DNA of 64,000 bases from Pseudomonas putida. Its GTDB lineage: Bacteria; Pseudomonadota; Gammaproteobacteria; Pseudomonadales; Pseudomonadaceae. Under the pieces are notes generated by a model, which saw nothing but the letters and a program-made list of their open reading frames with translations, searched no databases and was not told where the DNA came from. Shown in pieces: positions 30,058-49,483 of this stretch (positions within the stretch are counted from its first letter, which is position 1; the number at the start of each line of letters is the position of its first letter). The translations under genes and the position numbers were made by a program. The DNA lies in NCBI GenBank assembly GCA_041071465.1, contig CP163498.1, positions 930,001-994,000 of the forward strand, written 5' to 3'.

Positions 30058-30068
30058 ACTGCCTGTTC

Positions 30069-30166
30069 TGGCCTCTTCGCGGGTAAACCCGCTCCCACAG
30101 GAGGTCCACTGTCATTGGGTACAGTGCAATACCTGTGGGAGCGGGTTTACCCGCGAAGAGGCCGGA
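30069..30166. repeat. REP-type inverted repeat pair after rsuA
   Basis: GGCCTCTTCGCGGGTAAACC (from 30070) and its complement ending near 30164 form long arms around about 30 bases. Both arms carry the GCTCCCACAG/CTGTGGGAGC ends of the P. putida REP family. It could also act as a terminator for rsuA. Confidence 0.85.
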
Positions 30167-30505
30167 ACAGACGGCGCGGAGTCGTCATACGACCGCTCAG
30201 CGACAAAAGTCACATTTCTCCCCGAACGGCACTTGCGCGATCCACGACCCACTGCTTGAATCCAAATCGTCAGTCTGCATGTGACTACCAAGTCACGACC
30301 GCAGTCGAAGACACCTTTTTGCCGGCCACCCAAGGCCTCGATGCCTTGGGGCACGGCGAATTGCCCGCCAAAAACAATACCGTCGACGCACGTGCCAAGG
30401 ATCGACACAGGGCCCCCGGTTTCTCTTCAGGCAAATGCCTACCTGTCATAAAGAACGTGCACCCTAGGTGACGCGAATACCCTTTTTGCGCCAGGAGTCG
30501 ATGAC
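30167..30505. other. phaG upstream region
   Basis: About 340 bases without a gene. A small hairpin CCCAAGGC-CTCGAT-GCCTTGGG lies at 30329-30350. An AGGAG site precedes the phaG ATG. No convincing sigma-70 or sigma-54 promoter was found. Confidence 0.45.
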
Positions 30506-45022: not shown

Positions 45023-45349
45023 ATGAAAAACAAACTGATCCTCACCCTGGCCCTCTCGGTTCTCGCAACGGGCGCCTTTGCCGAAGATGGCTTCGATCGC
45101 ACCAACGCCCACACCTTCGCCGCAGCCCAGACTCAATCCGCTAATTACGTTGAAGACGGCTTTGACCGCACCGGCGGCCAACGCTTCGCCGAAGACGGCT
45201 TCGACCGCACCGGCGGCCAACGCTTCGCCGAAGATGGCTTCGACCGCACCGGCGGCCAACGCTTCGCCGAAGACGGCTTCGACCGCACCGGTGGCCAACG
45301 CTTCGCCGAAGATGGCTTCGACCGCACCAACGCCCACCGCATCAGCTGA
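45023..45349 (+). CDS. Small exported protein made of 13-residue repeats
   Basis: The 108-residue precursor has a signal peptide (1-20, cut after AFA) and a mature part built of the unit EDGFDRTGGQRFA: a diverged copy at 21-33, a 10-residue linker, four identical copies at 44-95 and a final variant at 96-108 (EDGFDRTNAHRIS). It resembles small pseudomonad exported proteins with GSDRT-type repeats, some of which carry the label phage infection protein, but that label has no clear basis. ATG 45023 follows GGAGC. Function unknown; probably periplasmic and disordered. Confidence 0.82.
   Translation: MKNKLILTLALSVLATGAFAEDGFDRTNAHTFAAAQTQSANYVEDGFDRTGGQRFAEDGFDRTGGQRFAEDGFDRTGGQRFAEDGFDRTGGQRFAEDGFDRTNAHRIS
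45152..45307 (+). repeat. Four tandem 39-bp repeats within the exported-protein gene
   Basis: Four consecutive 39-bp units starting GAAGACGGCTT / GAAGATGGCTT differ by only single silent changes, and all encode the same 13 residues. A fifth, diverged unit follows in frame. Copy number could vary by slippage without breaking the frame. Confidence 0.95.
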
Positions 45350-46073: not shown

Positions 46074-46307
46074 TCACCAGACCAGCTCGCCCTCTTCGCT
46101 GACGCCCTGCAGGCGTTGCAGCTCGGCGGTGGCCGCTTCGTCGGCGGCCACGGCGCCCTTGAACACCTGCCCGTCGAGCACCTTGTGAAAGCGTGGTGCA
46201 CCGCCCATGCCCAGGGCCTTGACCGCGATGGCCGCGTTGTAGCCACCCCCCTCCACCGGCACCATCGCCGAAACCGCTTCGAAATGAGTAAATTCCCTAC
46301 GTGCCAT
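46074..46307 (-). CDS. Small conserved-looking protein of unknown function
   Basis: The 77-residue protein starts at ATG 46307 (MARREFTHFEAVSAMVPVEG) and ends exactly where the convergent flavin-reductase-like gene ends. It has no signal peptide, membrane segment or known motif; the Gly-rich centre (EGGGYNAAIAVKALGMGGAP) suggests a compact beta fold. It is followed upstream by an ABM-domain gene on the same strand. I do not recognise it; the length and codon pattern support a real gene. Confidence 0.6.
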   Translation of the reverse strand: MARREFTHFEAVSAMVPVEGGGYNAAIAVKALGMGGAPRFHKVLDGQVFKGAVAADEAATAELQRLQGVSEEGELVW

Positions 46308-46356
46308 GTCGCTATCCGCTTGGTTGAACAAGTGCGTCACTTTACCTCATCCACCC

Positions 46357-46650
46357 TCAATCGAAGGTATGCAAGTCCAGGCTACTGACCACACGTGCCT
46401 GCACCAGCTCACCAAACACCTCCAGCGTCGGCGAAGCAAAGTAGCCACTCATCGCCTGCTGGTCCTGCCAGCTACCACTGAGCAGCCACAGGTCAGCATC
46501 AGCCTGCGAACGCTGCACGGTGAAACTCAGGCAACCCGGTGCACGCAGCGAGGGCTCGAGCAGGTCACGCAGGCGCGCGCCCAGCTCTGCAGAACGCCCG
46601 CTGCTGGCACGAATGAAAGCAAGATGGGTGACCGGTTGTTTTAGGGTCAT
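46357..46650 (-). CDS. ABM-domain (antibiotic biosynthesis monooxygenase-like) protein
   Basis: The 97-residue protein has the ferredoxin-like ABM layout: VTHLAFIRASSGRSAELGARLRDL at the N-terminus, LRAPGCLSFTVQRSQADADLWLLSGSWQDQQAM in the middle. Such dimeric proteins oxidise quinols or degrade small signals, or act only as binding proteins. ATG 46650 is the start. It is divergent from an AraC-family regulator across a 200-base gap that contains a 56-bp palindrome, so it may be the regulator's target. Confidence 0.75.
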   Translation of the reverse strand: MTLKQPVTHLAFIRASSGRSAELGARLRDLLEPSLRAPGCLSFTVQRSQADADLWLLSGSWQDQQAMSGYFASPTLEVFGELVQARVVSSLDLHTFD

Positions 46651-46733
46651 TGCACAATCTCCTTGAAGCGGGCGGACGGAAAAGCCAGGCTGCCAAGGTT
46701 AGGGGCTCACCCGCGCGGCGCGTTAGGCCAATA

Positions 46734-46789
46734 CTGCACGTCGATTGCCTGATCCTGCAGCGCTGCAGGATCAGGCAATCGACGTGCAG
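46734..46789. repeat. 56-bp perfect palindrome
   Basis: The two 27-base arms (CTGCACGTCGATTGCCTGAT then CCTGCAG, and its exact complement) meet at a central CG, so the whole 56 bp reads the same on both strands. It lies in the 202-base gap between the divergent ABM-domain and AraC-family genes. No T run follows on either side. Confidence 0.97.
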
Positions 46790-46852
46790 CTTTCGACTAG
46801 CGCCCGTCTGTGCCCAAACCTATGCTGCGTCGGTCAGTAGAGGAAAGCCATC

Positions 46853-47773
46853 ATGACCACCGCCACGTCCACCGACCCCACCCTGGAACTGCAGCGCCTG
46901 GAACTGGCCGAATTGATTACCCGCCACGCCGGCGAGCCCCACGGCCCGGCCTCGGCCATCGATGACCTGTACCTGGTGCGCTACACCGAGAACGTGCGCT
47001 CGGTGCCGACCCTTGCGCAACCCGCCCTGTGCATCCTTGCCCAAGGCAGCAAAAGCCTGTTTCTCGGCGACGAGCAGTACGCCTACGACCCACTGCATTA
47101 CATGGTGGTCTCGGTGACCTTGCCGCTAAGCGGCGTGAAGCTCGATGCCAGCCCGCAGAACCCCAGCCTGGGCCTGCGCATGGACCTGGACCCGGCCGAA
47201 ATCAGCCAGCTGATCGCCGAGAGCGGACCGATGCTGGTACCCAATAGACCTTCGGGCCGTGGCTTGTACGTGGAAAGGACTGATGCGGCGTTGCTTGACG
47301 CCCTGCTACGGCTGATCCGCCTGCTGGACACACCGCGTGATATCGCGATGTTGGCACCGCTGTTCCGCCGCGAGATTCTCTACCGTTTGCTGCGTGGGCC
47401 GCAGGGTTGCCGGCTGTATGAAATCGCGTTGGCCAACAGCCAGACCCACCGGGTTTGCCAAGCCATAACCTGGCTTAACAACAACTACCAGCAGCCGCTG
47501 CGTATCGAGGACCTGGCCCGTGAGGTCAACCTCAGCACCTCGACCTTGCACCACCGCTTCAAGGCCGTGACGTCGATGAGCCCGTTGCAGTATCAGAAGC
47601 AGTTGCGCCTGCAGGAGGCCCGGCGGCTCATGCTGAACGACGGGCTCGAGGCGGCGGTGGCGGCCTATAGGGTGGGGTATGAAAGCCCGTCGCAGTTCAG
47701 CCGTGAATACAGCCGGCTTTACGGCGCGCCACCGATTCGGGATGTGGCCAGGTTGCGGGCTACTGCTGGCTAA
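46853..47773 (+). CDS. AraC-family transcriptional regulator
   Basis: The 306-residue protein has an N-terminal AraC_N-type ligand domain (LVRYTENVRSVPTLAQPALCILAQGSKSLFLG near 39-70) and a C-terminal pair of helix-turn-helix motifs (about 210-300; DLAREVNLSTSTLHHRFKAVTSMSPLQYQK, AAYRVGYESPSQFSREYSRLYG). The ATG at 46853 is the start. It is divergent from the ABM-domain gene and probably regulates it or itself. The ligand is unknown. Confidence 0.88.
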   Translation: MTTATSTDPTLELQRLELAELITRHAGEPHGPASAIDDLYLVRYTENVRSVPTLAQPALCILAQGSKSLFLGDEQYAYDPLHYMVVSVTLPLSGVKLDASPQNPSLGLRMDLDPAEISQLIAESGPMLVPNRPSGRGLYVERTDAALLDALLRLIRLLDTPRDIAMLAPLFRREILYRLLRGPQGCRLYEIALANSQTHRVCQAITWLNNNYQQPLRIEDLAREVNLSTSTLHHRFKAVTSMSPLQYQKQLRLQEARRLMLNDGLEAAVAAYRVGYESPSQFSREYSRLYGAPPIRDVARLRATAG

Positions 47774-47845: not shown

Positions 47846-49483
47846 TCATCGCAGCACTGTTTCTTGCCACTGGTTCTGGTCAACCTGGATCAAGGTCGGC
47901 CCCTTGCGCTCCAACGCCAGCCCCAGTGCTGCCTGTAGCTGCACCACATCCGTCACATGCTCCGCCGCCGCGCCCAACGCCCGCGCCACACCGATGAAGT
48001 CCGGGGTATGGATATCCACGCCTACCGGCTCGATCGCCCGGTTGACCATGTACTTCTTGATCTCCTCGTACCCCTGGTTATTCCACAACAGCACGACCAG
48101 CGGCACCTGCGCCTCCACCGCACTGGCCAGCTCCGGCAGGGTGAACTGCAAGCCGCCATCACCAATCAAGCACACCGCTGGCGCACGTTGGTCGGCCTGT
48201 TCGGCACTGCCCAACCAGGCGCCCATGGCCGCAGGCAGTGCATAACCCAGGGTGCCGTAACCGGTCGAGGCATTGAACCAGCGACGTGGCTGATGCATGT
48301 CCAGGGTCAGGTTGCCGGTGTACACCGGTTGGGTGGAATCGCCCACCAGAATGGCATTGGGCAGGCGTTCGAGAATGGCGTTCAGCAAACGCGTCTGGCT
48401 CAAGGTCGGCTGGTCCCAATCTGCTGCCAGAGCCTGGCGCAGCTTGGCCACGCGGGCCACACCCCAAGTGCTTTCGTGCACCGGTTGCGGCTGGGCCTGC
48501 AAGGCACCGAACAACGCTTCGGCGGCCAGCTCGGCATCGGCGACCAGCGCCAGCTCCGGCAGGTAGTTGCGCACCGTCTGGTCCGGGTCGATATCGATGC
48601 GCAGCAGGCTGCCCGGGATCTCGAAACCGCCCTTGAAGGTCACGTCGTAATCGGTTTCGGCAAGTTCGGTGCCAATCGCCAGCACCACGTCGGCCTCGGC
48701 CACCAACTCACGTGTGGCCGGCAGCGACTGGGTCGAACCGATCTGCAACGGGTGGCTGGCCGGCAGCAAGCCTTTGGCATTGATGGTCAGCGCCACCGGG
48801 GCCTGAAGGTGTTCAGCCAGGCGTGCCAGCGCAGCCCCCGCAGCCAATGCCCCGCCACCGGCAAGGATCAGCGGCCGACGCGCACTGGCCAGGCGTTCAG
48901 CCATCTGCGCCACCGCCTGCGGAGCCGCCCCTGCCCGGCTGCCACGTACCGGGCGGCCCGGCAATCGGAAGTCAGCCGGTTCGACCAGTACATCGAGCGG
49001 TATCTCGATGTGCACCGGGCGCGGCCGGGCACTGTCGAACACGGCAAATGCTCGGGCCAGCACCTGCGGCAAGTCTGCGGCACTCATCAAGGTGTGGGAA
49101 AACGCAGCCACACCCGCTACCAGCGCGGCCTGGTTGGGCAGCTCATGCAGCTTGCCACGGCCACCGCCCAAGTGGTCGCGGGTCTGCACGCTGGAAATTA
49201 CCAGCATCGGAATCGAATCGGCATAGGCCTGGCCCATGGCCGTGGTGATGTTGGTCATGCCAGGGCCGGTGATGATGAAGCACACCCCGGGTTTGCCACG
49301 GGTGCGCGCATAGCCGTCAGCCATGAACCCGGCCCCCTGCTCGTGACGCGGGGTGATGTGGCGAATGGACGAACCCGCCAGGCCACGGTAGAGCTCCACG
49401 GTATGTACACCGGGAATACCGAAGACATGGTCCACGCCATAGCCTTCAAGGAGTTTGACCAGTACTTCACCGCAGGTTGCCAT
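47846..49483 (-). CDS. TPP-dependent enzyme, acetolactate synthase-like (AruI-type decarboxylase possible)
   Basis: The 545-residue protein has the three domains of the acetolactate synthase family: the PYR domain with the catalytic E48 in RHEQGAGFMADGYAR, a central domain, and the PP domain with the TPP/Mg motif GDGGLQFTLPEL...NNQGYEEIKKY. It most resembles 5-guanidino-2-oxopentanoate decarboxylase (AruI) of arginine transaminase catabolism, but an acetolactate synthase role or another 2-oxoacid substrate cannot be excluded. ATG 49483 is the start. A LysR regulator is divergent from it. Confidence 0.8.
   Translation of the reverse strand: MATCGEVLVKLLEGYGVDHVFGIPGVHTVELYRGLAGSSIRHITPRHEQGAGFMADGYARTRGKPGVCFIITGPGMTNITTAMGQAYADSIPMLVISSVQTRDHLGGGRGKLHELPNQAALVAGVAAFSHTLMSAADLPQVLARAFAVFDSARPRPVHIEIPLDVLVEPADFRLPGRPVRGSRAGAAPQAVAQMAERLASARRPLILAGGGALAAGAALARLAEHLQAPVALTINAKGLLPASHPLQIGSTQSLPATRELVAEADVVLAIGTELAETDYDVTFKGGFEIPGSLLRIDIDPDQTVRNYLPELALVADAELAAEALFGALQAQPQPVHESTWGVARVAKLRQALAADWDQPTLSQTRLLNAILERLPNAILVGDSTQPVYTGNLTLDMHQPRRWFNASTGYGTLGYALPAAMGAWLGSAEQADQRAPAVCLIGDGGLQFTLPELASAVEAQVPLVVLLWNNQGYEEIKKYMVNRAIEPVGVDIHTPDFIGVARALGAAAEHVTDVVQLQAALGLALERKGPTLIQVDQNQWQETVLR

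What the first reader, a model, noticed from the sequence alone, without database searches (positions are those of the whole stretch)
46734..46789. 56-bp perfect palindrome with no spacer between divergent genes
Both 27-base arms are exact complements around a central CG. Perfect palindromes this long are normally unstable in bacteria, and this one lacks the T run of a terminator and does not match the REP families elsewhere in the window. It lies between an ABM-domain gene and an AraC-family regulator, so it may be an operator with stacked half-sites, a recombination or cruciform site, or an assembly artefact (foldback).
Basis: seen in the sequence. Interest (0 to 1): 0.7.

Follow-up and report, generated by a model that had tools for sequence, protein, structure and literature searches.

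The report
Mirror-image operator with coupled arms
The 56-base palindrome is real: it looks like two back-to-back binding sites for the neighbouring regulator, one for each of two opposite-facing genes, and across related Pseudomonas species its two halves have repeatedly become identical again, as if one half were copied onto the other during DNA replication.

Summary
The 56-bp perfect palindrome is confirmed. It is unique in its genome, and its core stands at the same place in many relatives, so it is no assembly artefact. It is best read as the centre of a divergent AraC-type operator. Each promoter carries one module: half-site GCAGGATCAGGCAA, a 7-bp linker, and a weaker half-site 21 bp on, ahead of a conserved -10-like element. 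Of 141 loci with both modules, 81 hold them 23-211 bp apart and 60 at 5-7 bp, head to head; only the latter make the palindrome. The regulator is probably the CmrA/Afr orthologue.

Binding does not explain the mirrored linkers. They differ between species, yet both arms match 7/7 in 17 of 59 close-spaced species and in 0 of 81 others. Independent evolution, simulated, gives 0.3 on average and at most 6. Same-branch double changes ending matched: 16, against 1-2 in slid controls. Best explanation: repeated template-switch (quasipalindrome) correction. Both ingredients are known; the combination, with its wide-gap control group, is a new variant. Protein binding was not tested.

The parts
46734..46789 (.). 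56-bp perfect palindrome: both I1 half-sites, both linkers, the 6-bp centre and the first 4 bases (GCAG) of each I2
46765..46778 (+). I1, strong half-site, regulator-gene side (GCAGGATCAGGCAA)
46779..46785 (+). 7-bp linker, regulator side (TCGACGT)
46786..46799 (+). I2, weaker half-site 21 bp after I1, regulator side (GCAGCTTTCGACTA); reaches the expected -35 region
46821..46826 (+). putative -10 element TATGCT of the regulator promoter; conserved at fixed distance from I1 in 59 close-spaced loci
   Evidence: inferred, no consensus promoter was found
46759..46764 (.). 6-bp centre between the two I1 sites (gap 6)
46745..46758 (-). I1', strong half-site, ABM side
46738..46744 (-). 7-bp linker, ABM side (TCGACGT on the minus strand, identical to the other arm)
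46724..46737 (-). I2', weaker half-site, ABM side (GCAGTATTGGCCTA)
46696..46701 (-). putative -10 element TAACCT of the ABM promoter, conserved at fixed distance from I1'
   Evidence: inferred
46853..47773 (+). AraC-family regulator, AraC_N (PF06719) + HTH_18; probable CmrA/Afr orthologue
46357..46650 (-). ABM-domain (putative quinol monooxygenase-like) gene, the divergent target

Best explanation
The palindrome is the middle of a divergent operator of the adjacent AraC-type (CmrA/Afr-like) regulator. Each promoter has its own module: a strong half-site I1, a 7-bp linker, and a weaker half-site I2 that starts 21 bp after I1 and reaches the -35 region. Regulator bound to I1-I2 would activate the ABM gene on one side and its own gene on the other (inferred). 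In this lineage the modules lost roughly 100 bp between them and stand head to head, which makes an inverted repeat. Such a repeat can fold into a hairpin during replication; template switching then copies one arm onto the other and repeatedly restores symmetry, also in linker bases whose sequence is otherwise free to vary. Shown here by sequence: module architecture, its conservation, the change of spacing, the coupled change of the arms. Inferred: protein binding, activation, the replication mechanism.
For: Half-sites at a 21-bp period: seeds chosen on I1 alone show invariant bases in I2 in 84 of 84 cases. The module is found on both sides in 141 of 162 loci; the best of 100 random 610-bp sequences scored -14, the sites counted above 12. 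The DNA-binding half of the regulator is better conserved than the N-terminal half (mean top-residue frequency 0.90 against 0.74, 161 proteins). Wide spacing is basal on a tree of 144 regulator genes, 3 changes. Linkers match 7/7 in 17 of 59 close-spaced species and 0 of 81 wide-spaced loci; simulated independent evolution mean 0.31, maximum 6 of 1000 runs; with one side kept as observed, mean 0.40, maximum 7; reshuffled partners mean 2.2, maximum 7. Same-branch double changes in mirrored linker columns: 20, 16 ending matched; six slid registers 4-12, with 1-2 matched. Linker covariation score 0.251 against 0.115 shuffled, 0 of 500 as high. Three further mirrored linkers not used in these tests (L257, L260, L283). 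Template switching turning quasipalindromes into better palindromes is established in E. coli (PMC7202029, abstract and introduction).
Against: No binding or expression data. No consensus sigma-70 promoter. The site matrix was trained on the same loci it scored. Two of the pair-count measures do not exceed shuffles: linker pairs with a change on both sides 5 against 4.3 (182 of 500 as high) and further pair types 12 against 10.6 (128 of 500). In simulation, mean linker identity reached the observed value once in 1000 runs. The tree rests on the regulator gene alone, by a quick method, with some weak forks. Parallel selection on both linkers is not strictly excluded.
Confidence: 0.7

Rival explanations
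1. The operator is as described, but linker symmetry is kept by selection for a hairpin or cruciform in DNA, or an RNA hairpin, that has a regulatory function of its own.
For: The strand folds far better than shuffles (-39.4 against -13.8 kcal/mol), and the arms covary.
Against: Symmetry is not held: in linker pairs 58 changes break and 32 make a match, and near relatives of fully mirrored species often match poorly. Relatives with modules 23-211 bp apart lack it. The palindrome lies upstream of both putative -10 elements, so it should not be in either mRNA. The G.T/A.C mismatch count does not settle a strand: 11 to 38 in linkers, but 14 to 54 in the little-mirrored I2 too.
Confidence: 0.15
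2. The regulator reads the linker, and both linkers follow its species-specific preference; symmetry is convergent selection on two copies of one site.
For: The two sites serve one regulator; the first linker bases are less variable than the later ones (fitted rates).
Against: Wide-spaced loci have the same regulator family and the same modules, yet 0 of 81 have identical linkers. Linkers differ between species whose regulators are 92-98% identical to the window's.
Confidence: 0.08
3. A fold-back assembly artefact.
For: Exact 56-bp symmetry around a central CG.
Against: Same place in 49 gap-6 species (window included) with different arm sequences, also in single-contig genomes, and in a second genome of the same species, G310, probably the named P. 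hunanensis xwS6 record L269.
Confidence: 0.01
4. A REP element, terminator or mobile-element end.
For: An inverted repeat between genes.
Against: One place in the genome; no terminator-like site; between divergent starts, not gene ends; three loose Rfam matches, all far below the gathering score; no similar plasmid DNA.
Confidence: 0.02

Closest known systems
CdhR/caiX operator of P. aeruginosa (AraC family, divergent gene pair)
   Same: Direct-repeat half-sites with a 6-bp element and 15-bp spacer, that is a 21-bp period, a 34-bp footprint, regulator divergent from its target (PMC5806209, passages).
   Different: CdhR is called a class I activator there, with one site upstream of caiX. Here there are two modules in mirror orientation, I2 reaches the -35 region, and the half-site sequence differs.
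CmrA (PA2047) and PA2048 of P. aeruginosa; Afr (PP1395) of P. putida
   Same: AraC-family regulator; CmrA is reported to induce PA2048, called a putative quinol monooxygenase (PMC11200565 and PMC10269722, passages). Afr is given as 63% identical to the PA14_38040 product (PMC8091024, passages), which is cmrA = PA2047 (PMC7950407, passage). A 78% relative of the window's protein bears the name CmrA (P0097).
   Different: P. aeruginosa and KT2440 loci were not compared directly. In the P. nitroreducens/citronellolis group only the ABM-side module is found, so no palindrome. No second good module exists in the window's genome, whereas CmrA is reported to act on mexS too.
AraC of E. coli at araBAD (I1, I2)
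   Same: Two half-sites next to the polymerase site, dimer on I1-I2 activates (PMC8151288, passage).
   Different: No sign here of a distant looping site; two mirrored modules serve two promoters.
Quasipalindrome template-switch correction (E. coli) and template switching in RNA stems
   Same: Imperfect inverted repeats become more perfect by copying one arm (PMC7202029, abstract and introduction); paired changes in stems explained by template switching (PMC8794818, abstract and introduction).
   Different: There: reporter genes and functional RNA stems. Here: double-stranded operator DNA whose linker pairing has no known function, recorded across species, with wide-spaced relatives as a natural control.

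Membership tests
AraC/XylS regulator, AraC_N subfamily | PF06719 N-terminal domain and C-terminal double helix-turn-helix | tested here: met
   PF06719 E 1.4e-50, HTH_18 E 7.4e-22
CmrA/Afr orthologue | Close similarity to CmrA (PA2047) or Afr (PP1395) | tested here: inconclusive
   64% identity to the P. nitroreducens-type protein; a 78% relative is named CmrA; no NCBIfam model above its cut-off; PA2047 and PP1395 themselves not compared
CmrA/Afr orthologue | Divergent ABM-domain (PA2048-like) neighbour with a regulator site in front | tested here: met
   ABM PF03992; divergent ABM match in 156 of 162 loci, a few of these over 500 bp away
CmrA/Afr orthologue | Induction by electrophiles | not testable with these tools
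   Only an invariant cysteine, position 60, in 161 of 161 proteins
AraC-type direct-repeat operator | Two same-direction half-sites at a 21-bp period | tested here: met
AraC-type direct-repeat operator | Regulator binds and activates | not testable with these tools
   no binding or expression data
Quasipalindrome (template-switch) correction | Arms change together, several bases at a time, towards a better palindrome | tested here: met
Quasipalindrome (template-switch) correction | Effect depends on close arms | tested here: met
   7/7 linkers in 17 of 59 close-spaced, 0 of 81 wide-spaced
Quasipalindrome (template-switch) correction | Dependence on replication and nucleases | not testable with these tools
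   needs a reporter assay
Intrinsic terminator | Stem followed by a T run | tested here: not met
   none found in 46500-47000
REP element | Many copies in the genome | tested here: not met
   only this place, up to 3 mismatches

The most novel reading that the evidence does not exclude
Two divergent promoters whose activator sites meet head to head undergo concerted evolution: replication hairpins copy one promoter's regulatory sequence onto the other, patch by patch and in either direction, so that part of the operator's symmetry comes from mutation rather than selection. Whole half-sites could be carried from one promoter to the other in this way.
Probability: 0.6. Interest if true: 0.65.

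Novelty: new variant of a known kind. Interest (0 to 1): 0.5.

Why it matters
Palindromic symmetry in regulatory DNA is usually read as a sign of selection for a dimer site. Here part of the symmetry lies in bases that are free to differ between species, and it appears in some species but not in their near relatives, which points to a mutational origin. The lineage offers a natural experiment: the same modules with close gaps (59 species, linkers coupled) and wide gaps (81 loci, linkers uncoupled). It also gives a concrete operator and target to test for a little-studied CmrA/Afr-type regulator.

Tried and rejected
Assembly artefact, REP family, terminator, mobile-element end and RNA hairpin were considered and set aside. 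The loose Rfam scan gave three matches to unrelated hairpin families, all far below the gathering scores. Plasmid records gave no match. A search for further modules in the genome gave only one more site, with 3 mismatches, at genome position 2453241-2453275; its neighbours were not examined. One-mismatch copies of the half-site elsewhere in the genome (46 places) were listed but not followed up. Gap sizes between the modules were looked at by eye for a 10.5-bp helical period and showed no clean one; not tested formally. Of 80 named loci, 24 have both modules, 20 only the ABM-side one, 1 only a weak regulator-side one and 35 none at the cut-off used; the 35 are mostly Stutzerimonas and other homologues under 62% identity. 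P. aeruginosa is not among the 80 named loci. Papers: the searches that bear on a CmrA or Afr site and the passages opened showed no described CmrA binding site, but the original CmrA paper (10.1128/AAC.00585-17) is not held and most subscription papers are not in the library, so no claim is made that none is in print. The searches on template switching showed no operator case in the listings seen. PMC8091024 prints PA2074 for the PAO1 homologue of PA14_38040, whereas PMC7950407 tabulates PA14_38040 as cmrA = PA2047.

Sampling: the 162 loci are not random. They are 4, 30 held, 100 fetched out of the places listed (353 of 398 genomes had a match), mostly the best-scoring, and 28 of the loci. 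L135 was dropped as a duplicate genome; L045 (same species as the window) was left out of tree-based counts; a hit cut by a contig end (G413) was not fetched. The 81 wide-spaced loci include L130 with a gap of 23.

Full report
Observation. The 56 bases 46734-46789 are exactly self-complementary. The next longest such palindrome in the window has 26 bases. The 27-base arm, with up to 3 mismatches, occurs nowhere else in the 6.32 Mb genome, and the exact half-site GCAGGATCNNGCAA occurs only in these two arms (2 exact of 48 matches with up to 1 mismatch). An imperfect dyad runs on to 84 bp, 46720-46803. The neighbours are an ABM-domain gene (minus) and an AraC_N/HTH_18 regulator (plus), with about 203 bp between their starts.

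Not an artefact. A 212-bp query of the intergenic region matched in 6 of 57 genomes, the window's own included; four of the five others keep the two arms within a few bases of each other, and in the fifth (G009) they lie about 107 bp apart. The regulator has relatives at E 1e-70 or better in 353 of 398 genus genomes. I examined 162 loci (how they were chosen is told under Tried and rejected). G310, marked by the tool as the same species, has the identical 56 bp; it appears to be the named record P. hunanensis xwS6, L269, whose regulator and ABM proteins are 100% identical, so the window is P. hunanensis-like. An exactly perfect 56-bp palindrome stands in 3 of 49 gap-6 species, the window's included.

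Anatomy. Sites seeded only on GCAGGATCAGGCAA (one mismatch allowed) show a second, weaker copy 21 bp further on, GCAG(c/g)(a/t)T...G.CTA, with several bases invariant in 84 of 84 seeds. The 7 bp between the two copies vary. So each promoter has a 35-bp module I1-N7-I2 pointing at its gene. In the window the modules are 46765-46799 (plus, regulator side) and 46724-46758 (minus, ABM side), with 6 bp between the I1 sites. At fixed distances lie a conserved TATGCT on the regulator side and TAACCT on the ABM side (59 close-spaced loci). I2 then reaches the expected -35 region, as I recall for class II AraC activators. A consensus promoter scan found none; this suits an activator-dependent promoter but supports nothing by itself. 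CdhR of P. aeruginosa has the same direct-repeat period, 6 + 15 bp (PMC5806209, passages). Scanning 100 random 610-bp sequences gave at best -14 bits, while sites were counted from 12 bits; the matrix was trained on the same loci.

History. Of the 162 loci, 60 have both modules 5-7 bp apart, 81 have both 23-211 bp apart and 21 have one or none at the cut-off. On a tree of 144 regulator genes the wide spacing is basal and three changes suffice, though some forks near the change are weak. The palindrome is therefore best seen as a collapse of two separate promoters. In the P. nitroreducens/citronellolis group 13 of 13 named loci have only the ABM-side module (12 of the unnamed loci agree), which suggests that the ABM gene is the constant target. 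That agrees with reports that CmrA induces PA2048, a putative quinol monooxygenase (PMC11200565 and PMC10269722, passages).

Coupled arms. If symmetry came only from binding, the half-sites should match and the linkers need not. In the close-spaced set the two linkers match 7/7 in 17 of 59 species (18 of 60 with the second same-species genome), with nine different linker sequences; in the wide-spaced set 0 of 81 match. Simulating both linkers independently on the tree gave 0.31 full matches on average and at most 6 in 1000 runs; with the regulator-side linkers kept as observed, 0.40 and at most 7; reshuffling partners among species, 2.2 and at most 7. The fully matched state needs 13 changes by parsimony; by reconstruction, 10 branches lead to a full match, with copies in both directions. 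Mirrored linker columns show 20 same-branch double changes, 16 ending matched; six slid registers show 4-12, with 1-2 matched. The separate pair counter gives a linker covariation score of 0.251 against 0.115 shuffled (0 of 500 as high) and 0.024-0.118 slid; its two measures that count pairs or pair types do not stand out (182 and 128 of 500 shuffles as high). Of 18 named close-spaced loci 8 have fully mirrored linkers, three of them with linker pairs not seen in the test set (L257, L260, L283).

The window's own case. It differs from its near relative L049 at four places in the 76-bp stretch, and at all four the window's base makes a mirror pair that L049 lacks. A naive chance estimate is 2.4e-5, but this was chosen after seeing the data, and at three of the four places some other near relatives share the window's base.

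Against selection for a hairpin: in the linker, changes that break a mirror pair outnumber those that make one, 58 to 32; near relatives of fully mirrored species often match poorly; and the palindrome lies upstream of both putative -10 elements. The excess of A.C over G.T mismatches in the linker (38 to 11) is found in I2 as well (54 to 14) and so does not point to an RNA strand. Template switching at quasipalindromes is established in E. coli (PMC7202029, abstract and introduction) and has been proposed to maintain RNA stems (PMC8794818, abstract and introduction).

Limits. Binding, activation and the replication route are inferred. The tree is from one gene by a quick method, and exchange between species was not modelled. 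The P. aeruginosa and KT2440 loci were not compared directly. An invariant cysteine at position 60 (161 of 161 proteins) fits an electrophile sensor but proves none. No second good module was found in the genome, so a wider regulon like the one reported for CmrA is not supported here.

Noticed in passing
window 45023-45349 (+): Small ORF (108 aa) with a signal-peptide-like start and near-identical repeats AEDGFDRTGGQRF.
   Followed up: no
window 30063-30170: Long imperfect inverted repeat, 50-base arms 90% complementary around 8 bases, REP-like.
   Followed up: no
window 47846-49483 (-): TPP enzyme downstream of the regulator matches NCBIfam 5-guanidino-2-oxopentanoate decarboxylase above its cut-off (NF005712, 895 bits against 500).
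   Followed up: no
window 46074-46310 (-): 78-aa ORF just downstream of the ABM gene, without Pfam or NCBIfam match; possibly co-transcribed with it.
   Followed up: no
window 46853-47773, regulator residue 60: Cysteine 60 is invariant in 161 of 161 regulator proteins compared; the other two cysteines of the window's protein are not.
   Followed up: partly
G000:C1:2453241-2453275 (L286): Only other module-like site found in the genome, with 3 mismatches; neighbours not examined.
   Followed up: no
L098, L101, L102, L103: Loci close to the palindromic clade whose modules are 106-108 bp apart; their regulator-side I1 reads GCAGGATCGTGCAA while the ABM-side I1 reads GCAGGATCAGGCAA, as if the arms drift when apart.
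   Followed up: partly
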